Shown: positions 1 through 63,907 of the stretch, in pieces
Numbering within the stretch: position 1 is the stretch's first letter
Layout: every line of letters starts with the position of its first letter
NCBI RefSeq assembly: GCF_007860185.1
Contig: NZ_SJPY01000008.1
Coordinates: forward strand, 1 to 64,000
Direction of reading: 5' to 3'
Source of the DNA: Novipirellula aureliae
Lineage (GTDB): Bacteria > Planctomycetota > Planctomycetia > Pirellulales > Pirellulaceae
DNA: 64,000 bases
Notes under the pieces: model-generated
What the model was told of the DNA's origin: nothing
Seen by the model: only the letters and a program-made list of their open reading frames with translations
Databases searched by the model: none
Position numbers and translations under genes: made by a program

Positions 1-133
1 CAAGACAAATTGCTGCGCAGACTGTAAACTCATGAAGGGTCTTCCTTGTTTGTCGAAAGTGCTTGGTTGTTAAACACTTAGACGCAAGAAAGGCCCTTTT
101 TGTTTGGTGTCTCGTGAATAATCCGGGTTAGCC

Positions 134-189
134 GTAGTGGATCTTGTTAAAGATCCCTCGCAACAAGGATCTTTAACAAGATCCACTAC
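134..189. repeat. 56-bp dispersed palindrome, family A copy 1
   Basis: Two 23-bp arms, starting GTAGTGGATCTTGTTAAAG, are perfect inverted repeats around a 10-bp loop (CTCGCAACAA). The same 56-bp unit recurs at 42188-42243 and 63573-63628, and a broken fourth copy lies at 54926-55070. It carries no credible gene. The even size and hairpin form suggest a REP or miniature-element type sequence, which is inference. Confidence 0.85.
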
Positions 190-484
190 CAAGGTTCCAA
201 TTGCAGTTTTGCTTCGCAATCTGCTTTTCCTGTTCATTGTTCTTTCTCGCGGCTTCCGCCGTCTTGCCCCACCAAGCAATGAACCCTTTGCAATGTTCAT
301 TTTGCAATGATCTCTTCGCAAACCAAACGATCACCAAGCCAACCATCGCAAGCTAGAAGCTTACGCCACAAACGAAACGCCCGTGGAAAAGTCCCCCCCG
401 CGTGCGTTTGCTTTTCTGGGTCGGATCGGCATCCGATATCGCTATTTTCGTTTGGACGCGTATAGTCGTCTTGGAAAGGAAAAA

Positions 485-874
485 ATGAACATTGAACTCA
501 CCACCCCCGCGTTGCTTTTCTCAACCATATCACTGCTGTTGCTTGCCTACACCAACCGGTTTCTCGCCTTGGCAACCGTTATCCGCACGTTGCACCGAGA
601 GTATCAAAAGACACCTGATCCCGTAGCGGCCGCACAGATCGCAAACTTGCGTCGGCGGGTGAACTTGATTAGGGACATGCAAACACTCGGTGTCGCTAGT
701 CTCCTCTCATGCACGTTATGCATGGGGTTGCTATTTGCAGGAATTGTATTCTTCGGTAAAGTTGTCTTCGCGATTAGTCTCGTACTGATGGTCGGATCAT
801 TGACGATTTCACTCATTGAAATCCGCATGTCCATCGGTGCGTTGAATCTGCAGCTGAGCGATATGGAAAAGTAG
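485..874 (+). CDS. DUF2721-like small membrane protein, copy 1
   Basis: A 129-residue membrane protein of the DUF2721 type; its biochemical role is unknown. It has an N-terminal hydrophobic segment (about residues 7-25), a polar charged middle and two further hydrophobic segments near residues 65-85 and 88-108. The start at 485 follows GGAAAGG and matches the start of the near-identical copy at 62591-62980. An upstream in-frame extension is possible but not conserved in the other copy. About 100 bp of upstream DNA is conserved between the copies, so both probably share a promoter. The gene lies in an inverted duplication whose 3' edge truncates hsdM. Confidence 0.75.
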   Translation: MNIELTTPALLFSTISLLLLAYTNRFLALATVIRTLHREYQKTPDPVAAAQIANLRRRVNLIRDMQTLGVASLLSCTLCMGLLFAGIVFFGKVVFAISLVLMVGSLTISLIEIRMSIGALNLQLSDMEK

Positions 875-894
875 AACCGTTTGCTGTGAGATTC

Positions 895-1276
895 TGGCGT
901 AAAGTACTGCACCGCGCCTTTGGGGCTTTCGCAGGCACTCTTTTCGAGCAGCCCTTCGTAGATATCCCCTTTGGTATCGGCCTGCATGCTGGACCAGTTC
1001 TCGGTGTCGACAGAATCGACGATTCTCGCGGCGGAGTGTGGCGGGGTTTTGGATATCCTGCCGCGTCTTTTTCAAGATCGCCCTGAGCATCCCGGACTCC
1101 TTGCCCAGTTCATCGAGGATATGCCGGTAGTGTCGTTGGAGTTCTTCGCCGTCGCGCTGCAGCAAGCTGGCCCAATCGAGTCCTTTGGGCACGATCTTTT
1201 TGTTGTACGGAGGCTTCGACTGCTCGTCGGCCATTTTCAGAAAGAGCAGAAACGTGATCTGCTCGGTGTAAGCCAT
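895..1276 (-). pseudogene. hsdM: hsdM remnant (type I N6-adenine methylase), truncated at both ends and frameshifted
   Basis: The reading from 1276 gives a typical HsdM N-terminal stretch (YTEQITFLLFLKMADEQ). After about 80 residues, near 1030-1045, the frame must shift by one to continue with KGDIYEGLLEK and QYFTP, which precede the SAM-binding core in this family. It then stops at the edge of the DUF2721 duplication (895-898), so the whole catalytic domain (SAM motif and NPPY-type motif) is missing. The first ~40 residues of the family are also absent. It lies 24 bp downstream of the STAND gene on the same strand. It cannot encode an active methylase. Confidence 0.8.
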
Positions 1277-1299
1277 GTAGGAAAGCAGACTACAAACAA

Positions 1300-4200
1300 C
1301 TATTCAGCTTCGTTGGAGTCGTCTGGATAGTCGAAACCCGGAATGCCCAAGTAGTCGGCCATCCAAAGCGACTGTGCCTCACCCAACAGGTTTAGGCCGT
1401 CCCTCAGCCTGTTACGCCAGTCAGCCATCTCGTCAATCGTAAGGCCTTGTTTCTCATCAAAGTCTTCAGATGGTTTAATTGCATCCCCCATTGCGACAAT
1501 CAAATTCATGCAGTTCAAGATATTCGGACGGTCCTCAATGACTTCCTCATTCAGCTCAGGGAAATGTTTGAGAAGCTCTTCACAAGAGTCGAATGTTTCT
1601 TGCACAAATGGTTCGACGCGTTTGGCGGCTCGTTGCGCATATTCGAGGAACACCCTCTCTCCGTCTTCGTCGAGATCAACCTTACATCTCGTGAAATCCG
1701 CCATGTGATCGACGTGCTGAAATGTAGTCCCGTATGCAATTGTGAAGTCGTCGAAAACTTTTCTTTGATCCGGATGACTCCATTGTGGCAACCCGAGTTC
1801 GCCCCACGCGGAAATCGGAATCTCTTCCGGAACGAATCGCCAAAGTTGTGTTGCAGGGTCTTCATCCAGCGCATAAGACGCGCCCTTCATGTGAGCATAG
1901 GCCTGTCGGTCAAGACTGCGCCCTTGAACCAACGGTACCAAAACGATCTTGGACCAGAGATAGTCGATCGTTTTCGAGCGAACAATCTTGTCGCGATCGG
2001 GGCGAAGGGCCTCAACTAGCGCTTTCCACATTGCTTCAACTGCAACAAGCGAACCAAGTGGATGCTCTGTATCAAAGCTAATCCAGAGGCATGTTTCTCC
2101 GTACCATGGTACAGTTTCACTAATGATTTTCGCGTCAATTCCTCCCTTCTTGAGTTTTTTGAGCTCTTGTGAAAGTCGATTGGCTGTCGCTTGCAGGCAA
2201 TCTCGCAGTTCTTTTGAACTCCGGACCTTTGTGTTTTTTCGCCTCTTTTTCTTTTGTTTCGATGTGTTAGGCAGGACCTGATCCGGATAGCAAAACAACA
2301 TCCATGACCGCATGGTCTCTAAGAAATCTCGAAGTTCTTTCTGGCTAAAACCGTCGTCGAACTCTAAACGATCAGTGAGGTTTAGAGTCCGTTCCGTTTC
2401 CTGTAGCTTCCGAAGGGCGATTAACGCATCCATGCCATTTAGAACGGATAGTCGAATTGAGTCCTCAATCACTCCCAATTCTTTGCCTTTGTCGAGAATG
2501 GCTTGACGTGCACGTTCACTGACCGCCGTTCTCAAGTCGGGTACTAGCGCGAGAGCCTGAATGGCCTGTGAAAAAAAGTTGCCGAGCGTGTTCGTGAATT
2601 CGTTGAGCGCTCTGTTAAAGGGGTCTAGATTTGACTTGGCGACGAACTTCTTGCCCATTGATTCCATGAAGCTCGAAACAGCGGAACTGGTCGCCATTTC
2701 CCCAAGTGACTTATCAGACCGTGATTCCGCCATGAACCCCCATTCATCCACGGCGGATTTTGGGAGCAGAAACTCGCCACTGAGGCATTTATTGCATTCG
2801 TCCCATGCGGCAGTATCAAGGAGATTTGAGTCTCCGTTCTTTGCCAACACTTGCCGAAAATTGGAAAACGCATTTCCGATCTTTTCTCGAAGTTCACGTA
2901 CTTTTGCGAAATAGTCGTCCCATGATTCTGGGCGAAACCCGAACTCGACCGCACCACGAGAAAGAGCATTGAATTCCGGCAGCCACGGCATCGTTATGTT
3001 TTCAAGCGGCATTCTCTTAGTTGAGTCATCTCCCAACGATTCAAACAGACTCATTTGATGGCCGTAACCCGCAGCACCATACCTCGCATATCCCGGCAGA
3101 CACGCCGAAACAATCTCGACACGTTGTACGGCTAAGTCGTTTACGCTGGTTTCCTGCTCCGCGCTCTTCAAATCCGAAGCTTCCCGCTCAATGTCGATTA
3201 CGAAATGAGCTACCAAGCAGTCGTCATCCTCAACTAGTGCGATGATTGTCGCATCAGAGCGAATTCGTCGTTCAACTTCTTCGCGATGCTCCCGCACCCA
3301 ACCTGTGTACAATTCAGGAGCGAACTTGAAGATGCCTGCTGCGAAACGTGCAAACAGTTGCAATGGTAATAGGTTCCATGCGTCAGTAATCGTTTGATCG
3401 TTCAGCCAACCCGATACGTTGGGGTTTTCCTGTCCAAGATGTCCGAGCCAGTAGAGTGTTTCTCCGAGCGCAGCGAAGTGCGTTACCGAATCGAGATCGT
3501 TTTGCGGTATTGGGAAAGAACCAAGCCACTGTCGAGCGAAATCAAAGACCTCGTTCTTGTTGGATTGGCGATTTTGATAGCCTTTAGAAACGGCGGCCGC
3601 CGCGGCAAAAGATGGTGTCGTTTTCGCAAGCTGCTGAAGAATTGCGAAACCTTTGTCGCCTTTGACGTGTGCTAGGTCCCAGTCCAATGTAAACCACCAA
3701 CTAGTTGGCGAAATTGACCGCACCTCTGCCACGAGGTCCGTGTTCTTCCCCGCGTATTGCTTGATGCCAAGCCATTGGAGCGCAACCAGCACTCCTCGTA
3801 CGCCAGTCCATGTATCGAGTTGAATTCCATCGAGCCTCCGTACAACATCGGAGGTGGCGTTCTCATTCCGAGAAAATGAACAAAGCAGTAAGCTTTCTAA
3901 ATCGTCTTCTATTACAAGCGGCGGAAGTAAAGATTCAATTTTCCCGCGAGGTTGAAGAACTGGATCAGTTAGCTCTCGCGCAATCATCTCGCTCCGAATT
4001 GCATGAAATCCCTCGACATGCTTTCCGTCTGCCGACGTACGAAGTAAATACTCGTTCCCGAATCGCTCCAATGCCCTCGTTGGTTCTGGCAGCGCGATAG
4101 ACTCCGCAAGAGCCTTTAGATCGAGCCTCGCTTCATATGCAGAAGCCACTGCAACAAGCCGCAGTAGGTGAAGTTCCTTGTCGACCAACTCACCCTTGTT

Positions 4201-5598
4201 AACTTCGTCTTTGAGAATGCCAATCTGAGCTTTAACCCGTTGAGATAGGCTTTCGTTTTGAGTTACCAGATAAACAAACTCGAAGAGCGTCTTTCGGTCC
4301 CCAAGTTTTGACCATGCATCTTGAAAATCCAGTTGCTTGTCGCCATAGCCTGCATTCCGCAGGTTCTCAAATATCTGGCTGGCCGATTCCTCGGTGAAAT
4401 CCATCGAGACGTCTGCGAATGCAAAATCCTCCGGAGAAACACGCGATCGGAACCAATCCTCTTCTCTTAGTGTCACCAATACGCGGATTCCGTTAACGCC
4501 CGCCAATTCTCGGACGACTTCGACCCACCAGTTGTCTCCGGGACGTACGTCAATGTAGATCATCGACGGCACGTCGATGATGTCGGCGTGTCCTGCGATT
4601 GCTGCTGCCATGAGGCGGGCATGTTCGAGACTCGCCGCCTTCTCAACTTGATATCGAAAGTCTGACGGCGCCCAGTCGAGTAGGTAGCGGTAGGCCAACG
4701 TTGTTTTGCCTTGCCCAGATGCACCTCGAAGAATGACTACATTCTCTCGCAGAAACGCCTCGTGAATGCTCGTGATGGCGGGGTCTCGTGGAACGTCCAA
4801 CCCTGCGGCAACGTGTTCCGCTCGAACTCGCCCCCCTTGGAAAAACTCTTGGCTCAGTTTTTCGCGAGTTTCAGCATCTGACGATGCCGACTCGATGGGT
4901 TTGATTGATACATTCCACTCCTGAGCGTGTGCATTTCGGTAGGCAACGAACTTGCCAAGTTGCGTCAATTTCTCGACGGTTTTCGAGCGAGTCAAACGCC
5001 TTTGTTTTTCCGCTGATGAAATCAACCACCACATTAGATTTACAAAGGCCACCTCGGGATTACCTGAGGTCATGGTGGCCTTCAATTTGTCGACTACGTG
5101 CTTAGTGAGTGTTTCTTCATCGACAACCTCAACCTCAATACGCTTAAAGACCTCTTTCGCTTCGGCCTCACTCAACCCCTTGATGGTCTTCTTGTTTCCA
5201 TCCTTGTCCGTTTCATCGCGGTCTTTTGTCAGCGTGTCTATGGAGCGTTTGGGGGTATCTTTGTCGTTGTCATACGCCTTTAAGAGTTCAGGCCCAATTT
5301 CGCCGAAAGAAACAATCTTGATTTTGACCGATGCATCACTGGCACAAAGATCACTGATACGACGATAGAACGACGGCTTGAAATTCGATGCTGAGAGATT
5401 AGCTGAGTAGTCTTTAACTTGAACTACTTCGAGTCGCTGCCCAGAACTGTCTTGGATTTCAAGGTCTTCGTTGCCTTCGGGCTGAATGATAGTGTCATCA
5501 GACAGTCCGTCATCAAATAGTCGATACAAGCAGTAAAGAGCCTGCCTTCGGTAGCCACGATAGGTCGCGGTAGGATCGTCTTTGTAAATTCCGTTCAT
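1300..5598 (-). CDS. STAND NTPase with N-terminal PD-(D/E)xK-like nuclease domain (Avs-like defence candidate)
   Basis: A 1432-residue protein. Residues 1-110 look like a Cap4/Mrr-type nuclease module: a GYRRQ helix, acidic D45, then E57 and the QVK strand (Q60-K62), which fits a PD-(D/E)xK fold. Residues 283-560 form a P-loop NTPase: Walker A GASGQGKT at 292-299, a Walker B-like strand SMIYIDVRP at 345-353, and LVTLREEDW at 374-382. The remaining ~870 residues are mostly alpha-helical with no recognised motif, as expected for a target-sensing region. This order (nuclease, STAND, long C-terminal sensor) is that of Avs antiphage proteins, which bind a phage protein, oligomerise and cut DNA. 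Function is inferred. It is intact and sits 24 bp from both broken hsdR and broken hsdM on the same strand. Confidence 0.72.
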   Translation of the reverse strand: MNGIYKDDPTATYRGYRRQALYCLYRLFDDGLSDDTIIQPEGNEDLEIQDSSGQRLEVVQVKDYSANLSASNFKPSFYRRISDLCASDASVKIKIVSFGEIGPELLKAYDNDKDTPKRSIDTLTKDRDETDKDGNKKTIKGLSEAEAKEVFKRIEVEVVDEETLTKHVVDKLKATMTSGNPEVAFVNLMWWLISSAEKQRRLTRSKTVEKLTQLGKFVAYRNAHAQEWNVSIKPIESASSDAETREKLSQEFFQGGRVRAEHVAAGLDVPRDPAITSIHEAFLRENVVILRGASGQGKTTLAYRYLLDWAPSDFRYQVEKAASLEHARLMAAAIAGHADIIDVPSMIYIDVRPGDNWWVEVVRELAGVNGIRVLVTLREEDWFRSRVSPEDFAFADVSMDFTEESASQIFENLRNAGYGDKQLDFQDAWSKLGDRKTLFEFVYLVTQNESLSQRVKAQIGILKDEVNKGELVDKELHLLRLVAVASAYEARLDLKALAESIALPEPTRALERFGNEYLLRTSADGKHVEGFHAIRSEMIARELTDPVLQPRGKIESLLPPLVIEDDLESLLLCSFSRNENATSDVVRRLDGIQLDTWTGVRGVLVALQWLGIKQYAGKNTDLVAEVRSISPTSWWFTLDWDLAHVKGDKGFAILQQLAKTTPSFAAAAAVSKGYQNRQSNKNEVFDFARQWLGSFPIPQNDLDSVTHFAALGETLYWLGHLGQENPNVSGWLNDQTITDAWNLLPLQLFARFAAGIFKFAPELYTGWVREHREEVERRIRSDATIIALVEDDDCLVAHFVIDIEREASDLKSAEQETSVNDLAVQRVEIVSACLPGYARYGAAGYGHQMSLFESLGDDSTKRMPLENITMPWLPEFNALSRGAVEFGFRPESWDDYFAKVRELREKIGNAFSNFRQVLAKNGDSNLLDTAAWDECNKCLSGEFLLPKSAVDEWGFMAESRSDKSLGEMATSSAVSSFMESMGKKFVAKSNLDPFNRALNEFTNTLGNFFSQAIQALALVPDLRTAVSERARQAILDKGKELGVIEDSIRLSVLNGMDALIALRKLQETERTLNLTDRLEFDDGFSQKELRDFLETMRSWMLFCYPDQVLPNTSKQKKKRRKNTKVRSSKELRDCLQATANRLSQELKKLKKGGIDAKIISETVPWYGETCLWISFDTEHPLGSLVAVEAMWKALVEALRPDRDKIVRSKTIDYLWSKIVLVPLVQGRSLDRQAYAHMKGASYALDEDPATQLWRFVPEEIPISAWGELGLPQWSHPDQRKVFDDFTIAYGTTFQHVDHMADFTRCKVDLDEDGERVFLEYAQRAAKRVEPFVQETFDSCEELLKHFPELNEEVIEDRPNILNCMNLIVAMGDAIKPSEDFDEKQGLTIDEMADWRNRLRDGLNLLGEAQSLWMADYLGIPGFDYPDDSNEAE

Positions 5599-5621
5599 TG
5601 ACGACTCGTCATTCCTACTTG

Positions 5622-7274
5622 CTAACTGGCCAAACTCATTTCAGCTTTCAAGGACGTACCGAACAGTTCGTACGCGCGGCCGATGCCGCCGAACTGATTG
5701 AACGGGGCATATTCAAAATCGTCTTGCTCGATCATCACGCTGCTGGCTATGTGGTCCTTGATCGCGACCAGCCATTGCATCTGCTCGTCAGTAAACTCGC
5801 CGCCGCTGGACTGCTGGTCGCTCAGCCACTCGGTAAATCGCTCCTCGACGGTCATGCCGACCGGTCGCAGCGGCGAGTCGGGGTCGATCGCGTGACGGAC
5901 CAACGCCACGAGGTCGACGATGTGTTTGCAGTGCTTGCCGTTGGTGTCGACTTTGTCCGGATGCACCGCGCCGAAGGCTTGCCAAAGTTTGAGCAGCGTT
6001 TGCGGTTGGGACTCGTCGACGTGAAACGGTTTGATCGACAGGCGGCGGGCGAGGTCTTTGATTTGGCTGCACCGCAATCCGGCGGCATACGGACGGCTGT
6101 AGAGGATGCTGATGGCTTCGATTTCGTCTTTGTTGTCTTCGATGAATTGACGAAAACTGGTGACCAGCGTTTCGGCTCGCTTTTTGGCTTCGGGATCGAA
6201 GCTGGAGGTCAGCAGTTGGTCGCGCGTGAATTTGTCGATCACCTGATGCTCGGGTCGCAGCAGGATTTCTCGGAGCTGAGGGTTGTGAAACGGGAGCAAG
6301 GCGGTGCGGACTTGTTCGGCTTCGATTTCGTCCAGCTGGGTGTCGGTGACTTGGTCGGGCGTGACGCTGAATTTGCTGGCTGCCAGCTCGCGGTTCTTGT
6401 CGGCGTCGACGCTGTCGAAGAGCGTGGAGATGACGTGGCTGACGGGCCGGCCGTCGATCTGCTTTTCCACGTCTTTGTGCCAGCCTTCGCTGCGGTTCCC
6501 GGCAAGGCGACTTATCTTGGCTCCGAGAGTGCTGGCGAGGTCGGGATGGACGACGCCTTTGCTGACTTCTTTCAGGACGCGCTCAAGCGAGACGGTGGGC
6601 TGGCGATCAAGCGGCTTTGAATGGTTCTTGTCCTGTTTGCACAGTCCAACGGCGTCGACGATGACGAAGCGGGTTTTGCAGGCGGCGTCGGGCGTGACGG
6701 ACTTGAGCGAGTCCGAGTCGATGCCGCGGCTGCCGCGGCCTTTCATTTGCTCGAAGTAGGACCACGATTTGATGTTCCGCATGAAGATCAGACATTTGAG
6801 CGGTTTGACGTCGGTACCGGTGGCGATCATGTCGACGGTGACTGCGATCCGCGGGTTGTAGGTGTTGCGAAACGATTGCAGCAACTCGTCAGGACGATGA
6901 AATGTGAAGACATCACGACTTCGCGGATGAGGGTTGAGCGAGTTTGTGAAGCGAGTCACTAGCCCCGTCCATTCGTAGGCGAACGGCAACGGGATCGAGT
7001 AATGCGGAATACCTGGCTCCAATCCATCCGCGTACTTGGCTGATTGGATTTCGACGCCTGTGAGTGTATGCCCTTCTGGCTTCGCCTCGACGATCCCGAT
7101 CATCTTTTCATTAACATATAGGGTGTAGTCGGCCAAACCTGTCTTGAGAGGGAACTCACGAACCGCAACACTACGCCCTTCCGAGATGTTCATATCGGAA
7201 AGGTTCTGCACAATCCAACCAGCCGCCGACAAATCGCGGTCGATGTTCAGCCGAGCTAGTTGTTCTGGAGTCAC
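5622..7274 (-). pseudogene. hsdR: HsdR with in-frame internal deletion of the translocase core
   Basis: The 550-residue ORF begins like EcoEI-class HsdR. Its endonuclease core is visible (D49 in GLADY, E63 and K65 in VEAKPEG). At about residue 133 the sequence jumps from FHRPDELLQ to FRNTYNPRIAVTVDMIATG, which is the helicase motif V region, followed by motif VI (EQMKGRGSR) and the EcoEI-type C-terminal domain. Walker A, the DEAD-type box and motifs III-IV, roughly 400 residues of a ~950-residue family, are missing, while the frame stays open. It should be unable to translocate DNA. The junction lies near 6876. It is the first gene of the minus-strand set with the STAND gene and hsdM remnant. 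Confidence 0.8.
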
Positions 7275-7486
7275 GCGAGGAAGATGCCTGTTAGAAACGA
7301 CTCGTTTTGTTCACGCAAACGCTCAACAAGGATACATTCTGCGACTTGGCGTCGCAATCACGGGAGGTAACACAACGCAGTTGGGTGAAAAGGTGCGAGT
7401 GCTGCGTGCCCAATAAACAATGGACCCGCAAGAATTTGTGGAATGCATGGCAGTGAGTTCATCTAACGTCAGCCGCAAGGAGGGTT
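7275..7486. other. Intergenic DNA, no gene recognised
   Basis: About 210 bp between hsdR and the S24-like ORF. A short plus-strand reading from about 7300 to a stop near 7416 looks like a C-terminal scrap, but it has no start site and no recognisable family. Confidence 0.3.
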
Positions 7487-7924
7487 TCATCTATCATCGT
7501 GACTTGCAACCCAACAGACGAATTCACCGATGATTCGCACATCATCGGCGTTGTATTCGGTGATTTGGATTGGCTGACAGTTGCTGTTGAGTGGTTGTAG
7601 CTCGATGGTATTGTATTGCCAGCCGTCTTCAGTGATTTGTTTGGTGGAGCGATAACGTTTGACGGTGTACCGTCCGCCGTCTTCGAGGCCGGTGTGCGTG
7701 TTGGCTTGGACCAGTAGCATACGAGTAAGTTCAACGTGTGGATCGTCCGTTTCGATTGTCTCAGACTTCGTCGCTTTGATTTTTGGTTCCGGCGTGCCGA
7801 TGGAATCAATTTCGATGGTCGATTGGTCGGCGGAAATCAAGGTGGCTGAAGCGGCGAAGGTTGACATGGCTTTTGTCCTGTGGCTACATCGTCGCGGCGT
7901 CAGTCGGTTCACTTCCGTTGCCAT
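7487..7924 (-). CDS. Possible S24/LexA-like peptidase domain fragment
   Basis: A 145-residue ORF with an alternative ATG at 7867. The C-terminal half (GRYTVKRYRS, then WQYNTIELQPLN, then DVRIIGEFV) resembles the beta-rich C-terminal domain of S24/LexA-type proteins, where the first lysine block carries the catalytic Lys. The catalytic Ser region and any DNA-binding domain are not visible, and the N-terminus is low-complexity. It could be a remnant of a regulator linked to the restriction locus, which begins 213 bp downstream. The assignment rests on recall of the motif pattern and is uncertain. Confidence 0.4.
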   Translation of the reverse strand: MATEVNRLTPRRCSHRTKAMSTFAASATLISADQSTIEIDSIGTPEPKIKATKSETIETDDPHVELTRMLLVQANTHTGLEDGGRYTVKRYRSTKQITEDGWQYNTIELQPLNSNCQPIQITEYNADDVRIIGEFVCWVASHDDR

Positions 7925-7979
7925 GACCGCCCAAAAAGCGTGTCCGTATTGTTTTCAACGATGACGCGATACAGGTGCT

Positions 7980-9422
7980 TCATGACGGTAGCCGTTTCAC
8001 AACCGCTACGACATTGCCACTTAGCGGCGGTGTTAAAGGAATGCGTTTCGATTCATCCGATCGAGCGTCTTCGATTTGCGTCTCTGCGCCGATATCTATT
8101 CCGATCCAGCGGATTTCAAACTTGGTGGATGCCGCTCCGGTCTCAAGTCTGACGGTTCGTGCAGGTTCCGTTTTAGGAAAGTAAACCACCGACAGACTGC
8201 GGTCGGAGTTGCTCGCTGCATAGGCTTCGTTCTCGGACCTTTCCGTTAGAAGCTTGTTCGCCGGATCTAAATCCCAGAACGACACCTGCGATTCGACTTG
8301 CCGTGCTGCTTGGAGGCAAGCGACGGCTTTGTCGTTGATCCCCATTCCTGCATCAGGACGATGGAAACGGATCGATGCGGCACCCGCAAGTAAATGTCGC
8401 CAAAAACGCTCGATCGCATCCTGGTCGCTGTGGCCGAACTTGTTGCCATCCGCACCATAAGTCTTGGTTGTGTTCATCGGACGTGGCTTATCGTTCAAAT
8501 ATTTTCGGACAAACAGAAAATTGTCCCAGTGTTTTTGACCTTTGTTGTGATTGTTCTGCGAGACGTCGACATAGGCGTACAATTCGCTGTGGTCAAACGT
8601 TTGCCGATGCCGTTGAGCGTTCAAGTTCCAATCGTCCCACATCTCCGTGACCATGACTTGTTTCCCATCGGATGCAGCGCGGCGATGCAGGAATTCGGCC
8701 CAGTAACGCGACCATGCCGGGTCACCATTGGTCTCATTGTCGATGCAATACAAGACGTGATCATAAGAAAGCGAGTGATCAAGCATTTTGCTGACGAATG
8801 CTGTTTGAAACGCCAGCACGGTCTCGTTGTTTCGTTGCTTTGGCGTCGTGAAAAAGAACGGCTGTCGATTGCTGCCCGGGTGATCGGGATAACGCTTTTC
8901 GAAGCCGCTTTCGGCAGACGTATAGTTGACGTTGTTCAAAGGGTTGTAGGGATGGTCGTGCCAATGAGTTGAACCACGCGAATTTTTTCCGGAATCCGTG
9001 TAGTCGAAGCGGTCCCAAATTTCAATTTGAACAAAGATGCCTCGGCGTTTCGTTTCAGACAACATTCGCTCAAAGCGTTGCCAATACTCTTGGTTCCATT
9101 GGCCGAGGTCATATTTTCCATTTTCAAGACACAAAAAAGGGTAGAGTTCGAAGCCTTTGTCGTTACGATCACTCATCGTGTTTCGAATCACATTCCCGCC
9201 TGCGGCAGCAATACGATCGAGTTGCGGAATCAATTGATCTTTGGGCCACTGGAACAAACTGTCATCGTCGCTGCCGCCCATCAGCATGACGGGCCGACCG
9301 CCAGCGGACCAATACCAAGGATTTTCGGGCCACGGTTCGATCGCAATGGCTGAATTGCAGTTGGCCACCACGAGTATGGCGAACAAGGGAAGGTAAGCGA
9401 TTCGCGAGCTTGACTGGTTCAT
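7980..9422 (-). CDS. Secreted glycoside-hydrolase-like TIM-barrel protein
   Basis: A 480-residue protein with a signal peptide (residues 1-27, hydrophobic stretch ending NSAIAIE). The body resembles GH5/GH140-like TIM barrels: a WPKDQLIPQLDRIAAAGGN segment near residue 60, then a strand ending YCIDNETNG, where N-E is the usual acid/base pair of clan GH-A, and a later VMVTEMWDD strand that could supply the second carboxylate. The last ~90 residues are beta-rich, like a collagen-binding-type C-terminal domain. It is transcribed divergently from the glycan cluster starting at 10538 and probably belongs to the same substrate programme. Family and substrate are not certain. Confidence 0.6.
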   Translation of the reverse strand: MNQSSSRIAYLPLFAILVVANCNSAIAIEPWPENPWYWSAGGRPVMLMGGSDDDSLFQWPKDQLIPQLDRIAAAGGNVIRNTMSDRNDKGFELYPFLCLENGKYDLGQWNQEYWQRFERMLSETKRRGIFVQIEIWDRFDYTDSGKNSRGSTHWHDHPYNPLNNVNYTSAESGFEKRYPDHPGSNRQPFFFTTPKQRNNETVLAFQTAFVSKMLDHSLSYDHVLYCIDNETNGDPAWSRYWAEFLHRRAASDGKQVMVTEMWDDWNLNAQRHRQTFDHSELYAYVDVSQNNHNKGQKHWDNFLFVRKYLNDKPRPMNTTKTYGADGNKFGHSDQDAIERFWRHLLAGAASIRFHRPDAGMGINDKAVACLQAARQVESQVSFWDLDPANKLLTERSENEAYAASNSDRSLSVVYFPKTEPARTVRLETGAASTKFEIRWIGIDIGAETQIEDARSDESKRIPLTPPLSGNVVAVVKRLPS

Positions 9423-10537
9423 GATGGTATCCGGAAGGAAAGAAACGTTTTCACTTCGTTACCCTATCGTGGAACTGGTTTCAATTCCACTCATGCCTGA
9501 GTTGAAAATCGCCACCCTCGATGTGCTAACCAGGGTGTTAGCCGGTGTTGCCATATTAAATAGAGAACCAGAGGAATGGTATGGACTTTAGGAATTCTGA
9601 AACGTGAAGCATCCTTCCGTCGAGCTTGACATGTAGCTGCCACGTGTTGCTCCGCCCGGACAAGCTGGACGCAAGCAGGAAAAACACCCGCTGTGAAACT
9701 CGCTCCGTTTTTTAGTCCACGCTATTCGAGAACCAGAGAGTTTCTGAGGTTGTCTGCTTCCCGGTTGGTCTGCACCGCAGCTACCGCCGTCGGGACGGGC
9801 TGTCGATTTAATCGGTTTGACTCGACTGATTGTTTAACGCCAAGCCATAGGCGACCGATTATGGAAAAGCTGACGCCTTCGGCTAAGCGTTAAACGATTA
9901 AATCGACAGGCCGGGGAGCGGCGGGGGATGTTGGTTTTTGATCCGGTGGAGTTCACCGCGTTAAAACCGCCGCCCAATTGCTGGACCCTATCCGAGTACA
10001 TCAGGGGGAAAACCCACTCAAATTCCACGAAGAAGCGACGAGGCAATGGGAAGCGGTTGCGTTCTGTTAATTGTGGGGGGCGACGTCAGCCGATCCTGCA
10101 TTTAACATTTAATTAACATCGAACGGCGGAGAATGAGGAAGTCACGGTCAACGGTGGGGTTCCGGGAAGAGTGGCGGTCGTTTCGTTCGGCGGTCCCAAT
10201 CTTGTTTTTCCCTGCATTCATGAGCCGATGACGCCAGGCTCGGGCATCCTTTCGTCAACGCTTTTATGACCGGTGGGCCCGGCTCTCAAAATGGGACCGT
10301 CGAAACGTGGCAATCTTACGATCGTGTTTTTTTAAAAAAAATTTGTGCATACGGCATTAGAACTGTTCATTAATTGTGAATTGTGTGGTAGATTGGCACT
10401 CTAGGGCAGAGATTTATGCGTTGTTACTGTCGCAAAGGTGCCGAGGGGTTGGATGGCCTGCTTCGCATCAATTTTGTTGAGAGACGCGTTCCATCGTATG
10501 GAGCCCCGTTCATGAACATTTTGTTGGAGGTGGAGTG
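9423..10537. other. 1.1-kb divergent intergenic region with repeat B
   Basis: This region separates the divergent GH-like gene from the first GH29. It contains repeat B (9800-9909), a small hairpin-forming GCTAAC/GTTAGC pair near 9528-9545 and an A/T-rich stretch at 10325-10345. A perfect 10-bp palindrome GTTCATGAAC lies at 10508-10517, just upstream of the GH29 start. It must hold the cluster promoter, but no -10/-35 pair or CG-centred LacI operator could be called. Short ORFs inside look non-coding. Confidence 0.5.
9800..9909 (+). repeat. ~110-bp palindromic element, family B copy 1
   Basis: Both ends carry CTGTCGATTTAATCG in inverted orientation, and the interior has a second inverted pair (GTTTAACGC). 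The element recurs in reverse at 27332-27441 and, with a GGCGTGTCG end, at 54936-55053. There is no open frame, so it looks like a non-autonomous miniature element. Confidence 0.8.
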
Positions 10538-12313
10538 ATGGCAGTGATGCGTAAAGCAGGTGTGACATGCTGCGTGATATTTTTTGCGTTGCTAGGTCCT
10601 ATGCTTTGGGCCGAGCAAGCTGGAATGGCTGGTTCGCAATCGCAGGAAACCGCCGAGCAGCGTTCAGAAAGATTGCAGTGGTGGAACGCTGCTCGCTTTG
10701 GGATGTTTGTTCATTGGGGCGTCTATTCCGTAACCGGCGGCGAATACAAGGGTAAGATGCCGACCAACAGCGCTGAATGGATGATGAACAAGGCCCGGAT
10801 TCCAATTGCGGACTACAAGACAGAGAATGTCGATAAGTTCAACCCCACCGAGTTTGATGCCAAGGCGTTTGTGGAACTGGCCAAAGAGGCGGGCATGAAG
10901 TATCTCGTCATCACTGCCAAGCATCACGATGGCTTCGCCATGTTTCATTCGAAGTGCAGTCCCTACAACGTCGTCGACGCCACGCCGTTTGGGCGTGACA
11001 TCATGAAGGAACTGGCCGACGCCTGTGCAGAGCAAGGGATTCGATTTGGTTTCTATTATTCACAGTGCCAGGATTGGCATCATCCTGGCGGCATGGGAAA
11101 CAGTTGGGACAAGACGATCGAGCGAGTCAGTTTTGACGAGTATGTTCGAGAGAAGGCGGTTCCCGAAGCAAAACAGTTGCTGACCGATTATGGCCCCATC
11201 TCGATTTTCTGGTGGGACACTCCTCGAGAGATGAGCAAGGAGGCCTTTGAAAGTCTGCACGGTGTGACGGCCCTCCAGCCCGGCATCATCACCAATGATC
11301 GTCTAGGCAAAAACTCACCGGGCGACTACAAGACCTTTGAGCGGAATATCCCAAGGCTTGCTCCGGCGGGACAAGACTGGGAGGTTTGCATGCCCATCAG
11401 TGGCAGTTGGGGGTACAAGAAGTCCGATACCAATTTCAAGTCTGCGTCGACTCTCATTCGAAATCTGGCAGATATCGCTAGCAAGGGTGGAAATTACCTT
11501 CTGAACGTTAGCCCCACCGGCGAAGGGACGTTGTTGCCCGAAGCCGTCGATCGACTCAAGGCGATCGGTCGCTGGATGAAGACCAACAGCGAATCGATTT
11601 ATGGCACGACTGCCAGTCCCTTGGGCCGTTTGGCTTGGGGACGTTGCACGAAGAAGGAAGTCGGCGACGGTACGATCCTGTATCTGCACGTTTTTGACTG
11701 GCCCGAAGATGGAGAACTGCTGGTGCCCGGTTTGAAGAGCCAGATCGAGCAGGCCTACCTGATGGCCGATTCGACGGCCTTAGAAACTCGCCGACAGGAT
11801 TCGGGAATCGTCGTTGCCCTGCCTGCACGGGCCCCCGACTCGATCAACAGCGTTGTGGTGCTAAAGGTCCGCGGAGCATTGGACATTGAGGCCGGTTTAG
11901 CGATGCCCAACGAAGAGGGATCCTTGGTTCTTTCCGCCGACGTGGCCTATATCCACAACAACGAAGGGGCGGACCAAGCCCGTGTACAACACCAAGAGGA
12001 CACTCCCAATATTGGTTATTGGACCGATGAAAACGCTTGGGTGGAATGGTCGTTTCAGGTCGATCGACCAGGGCAATATGAGATCATAGCCGAATTGGCC
12101 GTCGAGCAAGATTCAAGCCGTTTTCTGGTCGACTTGCCAGATCAGCAAGGGTTAGTGGAAGTCGCTTCGACCGGAGGGTATGGCAACTATGTCCATCGAT
12201 CGCTGGGGAAGTTTAGCATTGACAAGGCGGGTAAGTGCAGCCTCCGTATCAAGCCCGACAAGGGCCATTGGCAGCCCATCAACCTTCGCAAGCTGGTCCT
12301 GAAAAAGCAATGA
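10538..12313 (+). CDS. GH29 alpha-L-fucosidase, secreted, with C-terminal beta domain
   Basis: Removes terminal alpha-L-fucose by a retaining mechanism. A signal peptide ends near WAEQA. The GH29 core shows ARFGMFVHWGVYS, KYLVITAKHHDGFAMF and the nucleophile strand IFWWDTPRE (Asp at about residue 227). The general acid varies in this family and was not assigned. The core ends near residue 350, followed by the usual beta-sandwich and an extra ~130-residue C-terminal region (from about 460) that resembles a carbohydrate-binding module. ATG at 10538 has GGAGG 7 bp upstream, better than the overlapping GTG at 10535. It is the first gene of the glycan cluster, with the regulator 65 bp downstream. 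Confidence 0.9.
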   Translation: MAVMRKAGVTCCVIFFALLGPMLWAEQAGMAGSQSQETAEQRSERLQWWNAARFGMFVHWGVYSVTGGEYKGKMPTNSAEWMMNKARIPIADYKTENVDKFNPTEFDAKAFVELAKEAGMKYLVITAKHHDGFAMFHSKCSPYNVVDATPFGRDIMKELADACAEQGIRFGFYYSQCQDWHHPGGMGNSWDKTIERVSFDEYVREKAVPEAKQLLTDYGPISIFWWDTPREMSKEAFESLHGVTALQPGIITNDRLGKNSPGDYKTFERNIPRLAPAGQDWEVCMPISGSWGYKKSDTNFKSASTLIRNLADIASKGGNYLLNVSPTGEGTLLPEAVDRLKAIGRWMKTNSESIYGTTASPLGRLAWGRCTKKEVGDGTILYLHVFDWPEDGELLVPGLKSQIEQAYLMADSTALETRRQDSGIVVALPARAPDSINSVVVLKVRGALDIEAGLAMPNEEGSLVLSADVAYIHNNEGADQARVQHQEDTPNIGYWTDENAWVEWSFQVDRPGQYEIIAELAVEQDSSRFLVDLPDQQGLVEVASTGGYGNYVHRSLGKFSIDKAGKCSLRIKPDKGHWQPINLRKLVLKKQ

Positions 12314-60628: not shown

Positions 60629-60866
60629 GTTATTGGTTTAACCGCCGTTGTTTTCCATTTGTAACCGAGGGAGTAGTGAAATCATTTAAATGCATCATAG
60701 TGATGACGCCACGTATAGCAGCCTCTGACGCTTGACTTTGCATCCAGAGTATTCTTTTAGGAAATGTGGATATCCAGTGCGTCCGATACATTTTCAGGGG
60801 ACATTCGGTCGTGGAATGCCCCCCTGCAATTATCTATTGAATCCTCCCGCCTTTGAGACACTCACC

Positions 60867-61766
60867 ATGCCCATTTTGTTGATGATAAATCTAAAGGGGG
60901 GAGTTGGCAAAACGGCATCAACGGTCGCAATCGCGGAAACGCTTGCAGACCAGGGGCAGCGGACGCTAGTGATTGACGCGGATCACCAAAGCATGGCAGG
61001 TGAACTGCTTGTTGGTGAACAACGCATCCTGAAGGCGGAAAAGTCAAAAGCGACACTTCACGATATGTTTCTAAAGATGGCAGACCTTGGATTCGAGCCG
61101 AGCCAACTCAACGAGTTCGCCATCCCAAATGCATCCAATGTTCAATCGGCTGCCGAGAACCTGTCGGTTGTGCCATGCTCTTTCCGAATCGATGACTTCT
61201 TCGGATGCGTCTCAAAGTCAAGGCGTATTTGCCGATCGTACGCGAGCGAACGGGATTTGCAGACGCACTTGGGTCGTCAGATGCGGAAGGTGCAACGCTG
61301 GGTTCGCGAAGAATACGATTTTGTCCTCGTCGATTGCCCCCCGAGTATCGCGATGCAAGTCAAGATGTTTCTAAGAATTGCCGACGGCTACATTATTCCG
61401 AGTATTCCGGATCAGTTGTCCGTGCGAGGATCTGCAAATTTGGTGAATCGTCTGAACAAACTCAATTTCACAAGAATTGAGGGGCTAGGAACGCTTTGGA
61501 CACTCTACCGCGAACAAGTTGCACTGCACCGCGAGGTCGTAAGCGACCCTTTCTCAGGGATACCAGACCCGTTCCAGACAATCATTCCTAACGCCACCAA
61601 GTTGGCCTCGGCCGTGGATCCTCGCGGATACTTGAACCCGGTCGCAACTTGCGAGGTCAAGTATGGAAAGCCATTTGCCGAGAGATATCGCCATCTGGTC
61701 GACGAGATCTATTGTCGATGCGAGCTCTATGGTATCGAAACCATCGGCTCTTTGCTGATTGGGTGA
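60867..61766 (+). CDS. ParA-family ATPase without adjacent ParB
   Basis: A 299-residue protein from ATG 60867: deviant Walker A NLKGGVGKTASTVAIAE (residues 8-24), switch DADHQSMAGELL, and FVLVDCPPSIAMQVK (Walker B-like). It has no N-terminal DNA-binding helix and no ParB or centromere-like gene next to it. It could position a cellular cargo or be the remnant of a plasmid partition system. Sequence upstream to 60732 is in frame but has no start support. Confidence 0.82.
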   Translation: MPILLMINLKGGVGKTASTVAIAETLADQGQRTLVIDADHQSMAGELLVGEQRILKAEKSKATLHDMFLKMADLGFEPSQLNEFAIPNASNVQSAAENLSVVPCSFRIDDFFGCVSKSRRICRSYASERDLQTHLGRQMRKVQRWVREEYDFVLVDCPPSIAMQVKMFLRIADGYIIPSIPDQLSVRGSANLVNRLNKLNFTRIEGLGTLWTLYREQVALHREVVSDPFSGIPDPFQTIIPNATKLASAVDPRGYLNPVATCEVKYGKPFAERYRHLVDEIYCRCELYGIETIGSLLIG

Positions 61767-62566: not shown

Positions 62567-62590
62567 GCCAGAATCGCTCAGCAAACGGTT

Positions 62591-62980
62591 CTACTTTTCC
62601 ATATCGCTCAGCTGCAGATTCAACGCACCGATGGACATGCGGATTTCAATGAGTGAAATCGTCAATGATCCGACCATCAAAGCGAGACTAATCGCAAAGA
62701 CGACTTTACCTAAGAAAACCATTCCTGCAAACAACAACCCCATGCAGACTGTGCATGACAGCAGGCTCGCGACACCGAGAGTCTGCATGTCACGAATCAA
62801 GTTTACCCGCAGGCGCAAGTTTGCGATTTGTGCGGCAGCCACTGGATCTGGTGTCTTTTGATACTCTCGGTGTAGCGTCCGTATCACTGTCGCCAACGCC
62901 AAGAATCGGTTGGTGTAAGCGAGCAAGAGCAATGATATGGTTGAGAAAAGCAACGCGGGAGTGGTGAGGTCGATGTTCAT
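62591..62980 (-). CDS. DUF2721-like small membrane protein, copy 2
   Basis: A 129-residue protein nearly identical to the one at 485-874 (differences include residues near the middle: RLRV for RRRV, TVCMG for TLCMG, AGMVFLG for AGIVFFG). Same start context GGAAAGGTAAAAT. Both copies keep an intact frame, suggesting either a recent duplication or selection. Confidence 0.75.
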   Translation of the reverse strand: MNIDLTTPALLFSTISLLLLAYTNRFLALATVIRTLHREYQKTPDPVAAAQIANLRLRVNLIRDMQTLGVASLLSCTVCMGLLFAGMVFLGKVVFAISLALMVGSLTISLIEIRMSIGALNLQLSDMEK

Positions 62981-63907
62981 ATTTTACCTTTCCGCGACGA
63001 TTATACGCACTAAATACGAAATAGCGATATCTGTTGCTGATCCAAGCCGAAAAACAAACGCCCGACACAGCGTCATCGAAGTTTGAAGCGTGAAGGTCAA
63101 AAAGAAAGGAGTGTGGTGACGCCCATTGCCGATCCAGCTATCGAAGTGACCGTCGCATCGCCGCAGCCACGCCGATGGTGACTTCGGTCATGCGGGGATA
63201 GTCTAGCGTTTCGGGCGTATCGGTGGCTTGGTGATCGTTTGGATTGCGAAGAGATCATTGCAAAATGAAAATCGCGAATTTGTCATTGCTTGAGGAGTTT
63301 GACGACCGGCTTGGAGAAGTTCAATTTGCAATTTGCAATCGCTCCTTCAATGGAACCGATGGTTGCTTCCATCGTTTTGGGCTTCTTCAAAGTGCGTACG
63401 CCGATCAATTCCGCAAGTCGATCGACATGCAGGCGTAGGTTGGCTTCGATTTGGTCGCGATCGTCATTCATAAGTGTAGCGGGCGAAAGGGCGGAAGCCG
63501 TGAATAAGAACAATGAACAGGAAAAGCAGATTGCGAAGCAAAACTGCGAAGGGATTGATGGTCGGTGCTTTCGTAGTGGATCTAGTTATAGATCCTTGTT
63601 GCGAGGGATCTTTAACAAGATCCACTACGGCTAAATGCTCGCCAAGTGATCGCATCTATGGAACGCTGCGGGGATAATCAGCGAGCCCTTCTCGACCGAC
63701 GTCGCATTGTTTTCAGGCCGGAGGCGGACATATCCGCTGCCGGTGGCTCACGCAACCGGCAGCGGATGTGTCGGCCTCCGGCCTGTGGATCGTTTCGGCC
63801 TCCGGCCTGTGGGGTGATGGTGCAACTAAGCTTATGCCATTTCTTTGTTTTCTGGTAGTCGTTCAACATTTCCGAGCGAGCCAAGTCATTAGATATTGTT
63901 GCGGAAT
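62981..63907. other. Intergenic repeat region
   Basis: Contains the DUF2721 promoter region, the repeat block 63350-63690, palindrome A copy 3 (63573-63628) and GC-rich GGCCGGAGGC/GCCTCCGGCC dyads at 63714-63805. No intact gene other than those listed was seen. Confidence 0.55.
63573..63628. repeat. Palindrome family A copy 3
   Basis: 56 bp with arms GTAGTGGATCTAGTTATAG and the complementary AACAAGATCCACTAC end; two substitutions weaken the left arm. Outer edge of the right inverted duplication. Confidence 0.82.

What the first reader, a model, noticed from the sequence alone, without database searches (positions are those of the whole stretch)
895..7274. Intact nuclease-STAND NTPase embedded in a dead type I restriction locus
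Seen: a 1432-residue protein with D45/E57/QVK62 nuclease-like residues, Walker A GASGQGKT and a long helical C-terminus, 24 bp from both an hsdR lacking its motor and an hsdM fragment. Known: Avs proteins (STAND NTPases with Cap4/Mrr-type nucleases) sense phage proteins. Inference: this may be a planctomycete Avs-like sensor, kept intact while the surrounding restriction system decayed. Its ~870-residue sensor region has no motif I recognise.
Basis: partly seen in the sequence, partly recalled or inferred. Interest (0 to 1): 0.75.

Follow-up and report, generated by a model that had tools for sequence, protein, structure and literature searches.

The report
Avs-like nuclease sensor, new sensor fold
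This gene, probably from a planctomycete, encodes a three-part immune-type protein (a DNA-cutting domain, a molecular switch and a large sensor) of a widespread bacterial family that the defence-gene models tried here do not recognise and whose sensor half matched no solved structure.

Summary
An intact 1432-codon gene (1300-5598, minus) lies 23 bp from an hsdR remnant that lost its motor and 23 bp from a frameshifted hsdM remnant. Its N-terminus is a Cap4/DUF4297-type nuclease: D45, Q60 and K62 are identical in 49 of 50 aligned relatives (the other is a gap). The middle is a STAND NTPase. The model of residues 1-640 matches Avs3, SAMD9, Avs4 and Avs5 best among solved structures.

It is not a recognisable member of the Avs families that could be tested: no Avs model hit it in PADLOC, while three PADLOC Avs2 models hit another gene on the same contig (E about 1e-190). 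The sensor (residues 545-1432) is confidently modelled (pLDDT 84) but has no solved or viral structural match at E<=0.001.

Sixty genome loci encode relatives, in 11 phylum-level groups of the tree. The sensor's last part is less conserved than the NTPase in 989 of 990 pairs. Three relatives carry a trypsin-like domain plus an upstream metallo-beta-lactamase gene instead of Cap4. Of ten hand-picked close neighbours seven are defence or nuclease genes; hsd genes are rare.

Most likely an Avs-like abortive-infection sensor; trigger unknown, nothing tested at the bench. The dead restriction locus looks incidental.

The parts
1300..5598 (-). STAND gene, 1432 aa: nuclease + NTPase + sensor
   Evidence: Open frame; relatives at 60 genome loci
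4915..5574 (-). Cap4/DUF4297-type nuclease domain and following linker, residues 9-228
   Evidence: Pfam Cap4_nuclease on residues 11-144, E 0.0011, 19.6 bits against a cut-off of 26.2; 16 of 40 members at E<=0.01; profile hit to solved DUF4297 9c1m_A, E 2.3e-6; model
5413..5466 (-). Predicted active site D45 ... Q60-V-K62
   Evidence: Identical in 49 of 50 rows, the other a gap
3919..4914 (-). STAND NTPase, residues 229-560
   Evidence: nSTAND3 and nSTAND_NTPase5 hit in 40 of 40 members at E<=0.01; Foldseek Avs3 E 1.3e-11, Avs4 1.9e-8, Avs5 4.2e-8
4702..4725 (-). Walker A GASGQGKT, residues 292-299 (K298)
   Evidence: K298 in 55 of 55 rows with a letter there, of 56
1303..3918 (-). C-terminal sensor region, residues 561-1432
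   Evidence: Model of residues 545-1432: pLDDT 84.3, pTM 0.81; 0 PDB and 0 viral matches at E<=0.001; least conserved part
5622..7274 (-). hsdR remnant, motor missing, the two ends in one frame
   Evidence: Pfam EcoEI_R_C 9.9e-30; comparison with intact HsdR
889..1285 (-). hsdM remnant, frameshifted and truncated at both ends
   Evidence: Pfam HsdM_N 1.8e-5
383..874 (+). DUF2721 gene bounding the hsdM remnant (not part of the system)
   Evidence: Pfam DUF2721 4.1e-35

Best explanation
The gene is a single-gene, Avs-like (NLR-type) defence sensor that probably works by abortive infection. The C-terminal region binds a phage molecule; the STAND NTPase, with ATP, then drives oligomerisation; this brings the N-terminal Cap4-type nuclease domains together, which cut double-stranded DNA. 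Shown here by computation: the three-part architecture, the conserved nuclease and P-loop residues, the fold kinship of residues 1-640 with Avs3/4/5, the faster divergence of the sensor, and effector exchange within the family. Inferred from characterised Avs and Cap4 proteins: trigger binding, oligomerisation, DNA cleavage and cell death. The family is separate from the Avs families tested here and its sensor matches no solved structure found. The surrounding type I restriction locus is a decayed neighbour that the family in general does not need.
For: Foldseek of the 1-640 model: Avs3 (8dgc) ranks first, then SAMD9, Avs4 (two chains) and Avs5; HerA-DUF4297 is seventh. Cap4/DUF4297 nuclease by profile with D45/Q60/K62 identical in 49 of 50 rows. 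NTPase residues R378, E440, H532, R535 identical in 56 of 56 rows and K298 in 55 of 55 with a letter. The last C-terminal part is less conserved than the NTPase in 989 of 990 pairs and than the nuclease in 984. Effector exchange: L052, L055 and L063 have a trypsin-like N-terminus and an overlapping upstream gene; on L055 these are Trypsin_2 E 0.0013, below its cut-off, and Lactamase_B 2e-5; the three sit in a 7-row Bacillota clade (100/100) whose other four rows have the nuclease residues. Such nuclease-protease pairs are antiviral effectors in PMC12799240 (passages and one section seen). Seven of ten hand-picked close neighbours are defence or nuclease genes. Patchy occurrence: 1 of 98 genomes, the window's own; 3 of 392 in the phylum sample, itself included. 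Ten plasmid records match, one over at least 80% of the query.
Against: No activity or phage trigger has been tested. Pfam matches of the window protein are all below the curated cut-offs. TM-scores to the Avs structures are low (0.23-0.30 by query), and most of the 50 Foldseek rows shown are general AAA-type ATPases, so the NTPase drives much of the match; a regulator of the maltose system (8bob) is sixth (that it is the STAND protein MalT is recalled). No conserved partner: no Pfam family in more than 3 of 101 flanking proteins at E<=1e-5, no cluster of neighbours in more than 7 of 68 loci. No background rate of defence genes was measured. Several relatives are short or split ORFs, for example L048 (555 aa) and L059 (679 aa), ending well inside their loci.
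Confidence: 0.72

Rival explanations
1. Guard of a restriction or other defence system, like PrrC: the nuclease-STAND is held silent by, or watches, the neighbouring complex and fires when a phage inhibits it.
For: It sits between hsdR and hsdM remnants; in L054 the gene lies 99 bp behind an hsdR-hsdM-hsdS run; in 19 of 62 loci with an upstream ORF that ORF is on the same strand within 60 bp, and several of these are defence genes. Regulation of PrrC by a restriction-modification protein is in the abstract start of PMC3874168 (search listing).
Against: HsdM hits in 3 of 66 loci and HsdR in 1 (three plasmid proteins of each kind as queries, E<=1e-8); in the window the complex is dead yet the gene is intact; the close upstream genes belong to unrelated families.
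Confidence: 0.08
2. A STAND regulator with a non-defence role, for instance transcription control or programmed DNA cleavage in stress.
For: No function has been measured; the maltose-system regulator structure 8bob is the sixth structural match.
Against: Invariant nuclease residues, exchange for a known antiviral effector pair, plasmid carriage and patchy occurrence, several defence neighbours.
Confidence: 0.1
3. The gene is itself a relic, open by luck in a decaying locus.
For: Both flanking hsd genes are broken and some relatives elsewhere are split or short ORFs.
Against: Full length with no stops; it carries the residues that are invariant over the family; 46% identity to the Bythopirellula relative over residues 4-1419.
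Confidence: 0.08

Closest known systems
Avs3/Avs4/Avs5 (AVAST) STAND sensors
   Same: Effector + STAND NTPase + large C-terminal region; all three are among the five best solved structures for residues 1-640
   Different: No Avs hit in PADLOC, no hit in NCBIfam; profile comparison with the Avs2-type protein of the same genome aligns only about 98 columns round the P-loop (E 0.0019) and nothing credible in the sensor (E 0.41); the sensor model has no PDB match at E<=0.001
Cap4 / DUF4297 nucleases (HerA-DUF4297; LmuA of Lamassu)
   Same: N-terminal nuclease domain by profile
   Different: Here joined to a STAND NTPase in one chain
Nuclease-protease pairs (PMC12799240)
   Same: Relatives L052, L055 and L063 have a trypsin-like N-terminus and an upstream gene; the L055 one hits LmuA 2.2e-80, RTasMBL 3.1e-50 and Avs1a 1.9e-33, and 3 of 101 flanking proteins hit Avs1a at E<=1e-20
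   Different: The window protein has the Cap4 effector; the Avs1b model hits neither it nor L055 or L063. Whether the paper's supplement already lists this STAND carrier was not seen.
PADLOC candidate PDC-S73
   Same: Weak hit, E 0.0029, residues 283-316, over the P-loop
   Different: No match to nuclease or sensor

Membership tests
STAND NTPase superfamily | P-loop NTPase of nSTAND/NACHT type | tested here: met
   40 of 40 members hit nSTAND3 and nSTAND_NTPase5 at E<=0.01, the window protein below the curated cut-offs; structural matches Avs3/4/5, SAMD9, CED-4
Cap4/DUF4297 nuclease | PD-(D/E)XK-type core with D...QxK | tested here: met
   the reading of these residues as a PD-(D/E)XK site is recalled knowledge of the fold
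Cap4/DUF4297 nuclease | Double-stranded DNA cleavage | not testable with these tools
   Needs biochemistry
AVAST (Avs) | Effector-STAND-large C-terminal region layout | tested here: met
AVAST (Avs) | Sequence hit to Avs family models | tested here: not met
   No Avs family among PADLOC hits at E<=1, none in NCBIfam. Avs1b, three Avs2 models and Avs3b miss the window gene and the tested relatives' genes, while the Avs2 models hit G000:C8:71041-75546 at 4.2e-183, 1.6e-191 and 2.3e-190. At E<=1 Avs1b and two Avs2 models also ring in 7, 10 and 9 of 14 control genomes, so weak hits mean little. That PADLOC holds Avs3a, Avs4 and Avs5 models was not checked by name.
AVAST (Avs) | Sensor of the solved Avs3/Avs4 kind | tested here: not met
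   0 PDB matches at E<=0.001 for residues 545-1432, Avs not among the 50 rows shown
AVAST (Avs) | Activation by a phage protein | not testable with these tools
   Trigger unknown
Type I restriction accessory (PrrC-like) | Constant linkage to an intact hsd operon | tested here: not met
   HsdR and HsdM together in 1 of 66 loci; remnants only in the window

The most novel reading that the evidence does not exclude
A further class of bacterial NLR-type sensor with a sensor fold not seen before, whose effector (Cap4 nuclease, protease/MBL pair, or none) is exchangeable, and which is often placed directly behind other defence genes because it responds to phage attack on those systems rather than to one structural phage protein.
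Probability: 0.12. Interest if true: 0.75.

Novelty: new variant of a known kind. Interest (0 to 1): 0.52.

Why it matters
Avs proteins are among the closest bacterial counterparts of animal and plant NLR sensors, and their known triggers are a short list of phage proteins (PMC12931631, passages). A family spread over 11 phylum-level groups, with a confidently modelled but structurally unmatched sensor, points to further, unknown triggers. The Cap4-to-protease/MBL exchange inside one clade is a natural experiment in effector swapping.

Tried and rejected
Viral contigs gave no relative, by single protein or by alignment (48 stretches matched a pattern, none confirmed). One phage record has a relative, next to a Septu-like gene pair, so it may be a bacterial defence island. 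The C-terminal model found nothing at E<=0.001 in PDB or viral models. Profile A5 against solved sequences gave five designed helical proteins (best E 0.004) and a ribosome-inactivating protein at E 0.57. Promoter scan: 1 found, 4.4 expected. A conserved partner gene was sought by clustering 853 ORFs of the loci: beyond the family itself the largest cluster spans 7 loci and was not identified. That the family is Avs1 because of its protease/MBL relatives was tested and dropped. hsdS: one HsdS query found nothing in window 1-12000 at E<=0.01, but HsdS varies greatly and the same query also missed the HsdS of L054. Rows dropped before counts: L001, L003, L040 and members under 900 aa from the 56-row alignment; for A4 and A5 the six rows from loci below L010, then nine members with no or an unsuitable N-terminus and L031 (40 rows in A4), or four members and then L052 and L066 (44 rows in A5); three neighbours from A3, two of them from L014, a near-copy of L004 (101 of 104); 11 of 56 rows, leaving 45 and 990 pairs. 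The ten proteins were picked for closeness and size; nine lie upstream, one (L024) downstream.
Full report
Observation. Upstream in the same direction lies an open 550-codon hsdR remnant and downstream an hsdM remnant, each 23 bp away by ORF ends. Measured against three intact plasmid type I systems (L074-L076), hsdR has lost about residues 144-490, the motor, with both remaining pieces in one frame, and hsdM keeps only about residues 22-153 with a frameshift. In those three systems the stretch between hsdR and hsdM holds hsdS and accessory genes; in the window it holds the STAND gene, and one HsdS query found nothing, which is weak evidence because HsdS varies. The genome has no other EcoEI-type HsdR C-terminus, and its three N6-methylase matches are partial: one in a 118-codon frame with a stop, two in long frames of 904 and 1207 codons.

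Host. That the window is from a planctomycete is inferred: genome G472, given as the same phylum, has a 15834-base contig with the same fragment as a Candidatus Brocadia contig of that length (L003 and L069).

Nuclease. Pfam Cap4_nuclease matches residues 11-144 at E 0.0011 when residues 1-640 are scanned (19.6 bits, cut-off 26.2), and 16 of 40 members at E<=0.01. A profile of the 40 members hits the solved DUF4297 protein 9c1m_A at E 2.3e-6. Six of seven relatives scanned hit LmuA models in this region, as does L010. E41, D45, Q60 and K62 are identical in 49 of 50 rows that should carry the domain, the fiftieth (L067) being a gap; E57 is E in 41 of 50. The model runs helix, three strands, helix, strand over residues 9-97.

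NTPase. All 40 members hit nSTAND3 and nSTAND_NTPase5 at E<=0.01. K298 is kept in 55 of 55 rows with a letter there, and R378, E440, H532 and R535 in 56 of 56. The 1-640 model (pLDDT 87.2, pTM 0.72) finds Avs3 bound to terminase first (E 1.3e-11), then SAMD9, Avs4 bound to portal and Avs5; the sixth is a maltose-system regulator and the seventh HerA-DUF4297; most of the other rows shown are AAA-type ATPases. TM-scores are low, 0.23-0.30 by query for the Avs entries, as expected if domain placement differs, though that was not examined.

Sensor. Residues 545-1432 give a confident model (pLDDT 84.3, pTM 0.81): helices with two alpha/beta parts. There is no match at E<=0.001 in the PDB (best 0.054) or among viral models (best 0.098), and no PADLOC family in more than 1 of 44 members at E<=0.01. 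Mean pairwise identity over 990 pairs is 0.31 for the nuclease part, 0.35 for the NTPase and 0.21, 0.22 and 0.18 for three C-terminal parts; the NTPase exceeds the last part in 989 pairs. A fast-changing sensor would show this, but faster change alone does not prove sensing.

Family. One scan of the species-genome collection gave 60 loci, including one pair with the same match score and length (L039/L040) and several short or split ORFs. The tree of 52 rows names 11 phylum-level groups, 8 rows being ungrouped. Closest to the window are Bythopirellula (Planctomycetota, 46%) and an Obscuribacterales bin (41%); the three form a 100/100 group in which the other two are nearer each other (100/98). 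Transfer between phyla is likely, with the caution that one is a metagenome bin. Occurrence is patchy: 1 of 98 related genomes, the window's own, and 3 of 392 in the phylum sample, itself included. Ten plasmid records match, one over at least 80% of the query.

Effector exchange. L052, L055 and L063 begin with a trypsin-like sequence instead of Cap4 and overlap an upstream gene. On L055, which was scanned singly, the domain is Trypsin_2 (E 0.0013, below its cut-off) and the upstream protein is Lactamase_B (2e-5), LmuA (2.2e-80), RTasMBL (3.1e-50) and Avs1a (1.9e-33); L063 hits the same LmuA model (PDLC03855) as L055 with its N-terminus; L052 rests on likeness. The three lie in a 7-row Bacillota clade (100/100) whose other four rows, L049, L051, L053 and L060, have the nuclease residues; their nearest sister within it is uncertain (82/50). 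PMC12799240 (passages and one section seen) describes such nuclease-protease pairs as antiviral effectors in AVAST, Lamassu, Hachiman and DRT systems, and mentions further loci in a supplementary figure that I did not see. L024 and L043 begin near the NTPase and lack the nuclease.

Context. Of ten close neighbours picked for closeness and size, seven are defence or nuclease families (Mrr, NERD, SMODS, two AbiEii, REase-ARP, YhcG), two had no hit and one is an oxidoreductase. Across 101 flanking proteins no Pfam family occurs more than 3 times at E<=1e-5. HsdM queries hit 3 of 66 loci and HsdR 1, namely L054, where hsdR-hsdM-hsdS precede the gene. The hsd neighbourhood of the window therefore looks like one of many contexts. 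No background rate of defence genes was measured.

Is it an Avs? By layout and NTPase fold it looks as if it works like one. By sequence it is not in the modelled families that could be tested: no Avs hit in PADLOC at E<=1, nothing in NCBIfam. Avs1b, three Avs2 models and Avs3b miss the gene and the tested relatives. As a control, the Avs2 models hit an open frame about 65 kb away on the same contig, G000:C8:71041-75546 (E 4.2e-183, 1.6e-191, 2.3e-190), listed as a 1552-codon ORF. Profile comparison of the family with that protein aligns only the P-loop region (E 0.0019) and nothing credible in the sensor (E 0.41). Presence of Avs3a, Avs4 and Avs5 models in PADLOC was not checked by name; for Avs3 and Avs4 the structural test of the sensor stands in.

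Literature. Searches for STAND/Avs/Cap4 combinations showed no title or abstract start that names this family; bodies were seen only as passages, and one section of one paper. A main Avs paper (PMC10028730) is not held. DefensePredictor (PMC13092281, passages) validates systems with PD-(D/E)XK and P-loop domains whose sequences I did not compare. Prior mention therefore cannot be excluded. PMC12931631 (passages) says that Avs1-4 act by nucleases that cleave phage and host genomes and Avs5 by a Sir2 domain.

Mechanism. Shown: anatomy, conserved sites, fold kinship, faster sensor divergence, effector exchange. Inferred: ligand binding by the C-terminal region, ATP-driven assembly, nuclease activation and abortive infection. 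The trigger is unknown.

Noticed in passing
G000:C8:71041-75546 (L089:6973-11631), about 7 kb beyond the window end: Open frame strongly matching three PADLOC Avs2 models (E 4.2e-183, 1.6e-191, 2.3e-190) on the same contig; used as a control.
   Followed up: partly
G000:C10:255068-255391: Match to PADLOC Avs3b (E 1.4e-15, 279-codon frame) elsewhere in the same genome.
   Followed up: no
window 401-898 and 62567-63064: Inverted near-copies (86% nt) of a DUF2721 gene region bracket about 62 kb; same-genus genome G002 has one close copy. May mark an island or rearrangement.
   Followed up: partly
window 60732-61766: ParA-like ATPase ORF near the second DUF2721 copy, judged by eye from a KGGVGKT motif.
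   Followed up: no
L052:5351-9263, L055:8272-13189, L063:8287-13183: Gene overlapping a trypsin-STAND gene, metallo-beta-lactamase-like on L055: the known nuclease-protease pair on this STAND family.
   Followed up: partly
G000:C2:31336-31545: N6-methylase fragment in a short frame with a stop, possibly debris of a methylase gene.
   Followed up: no
L007:1794-4563: Pair matching PADLOC PDC-M62A/B and PtuA/PtuB upstream of a relative, in a record labelled Bacteriophage sp..
   Followed up: no
L048:9992-11659, L059:9959-11998: Relatives whose ORFs end after the NTPase (555 and 679 aa) well inside their loci: decayed copies or sensor-less forms.
   Followed up: no
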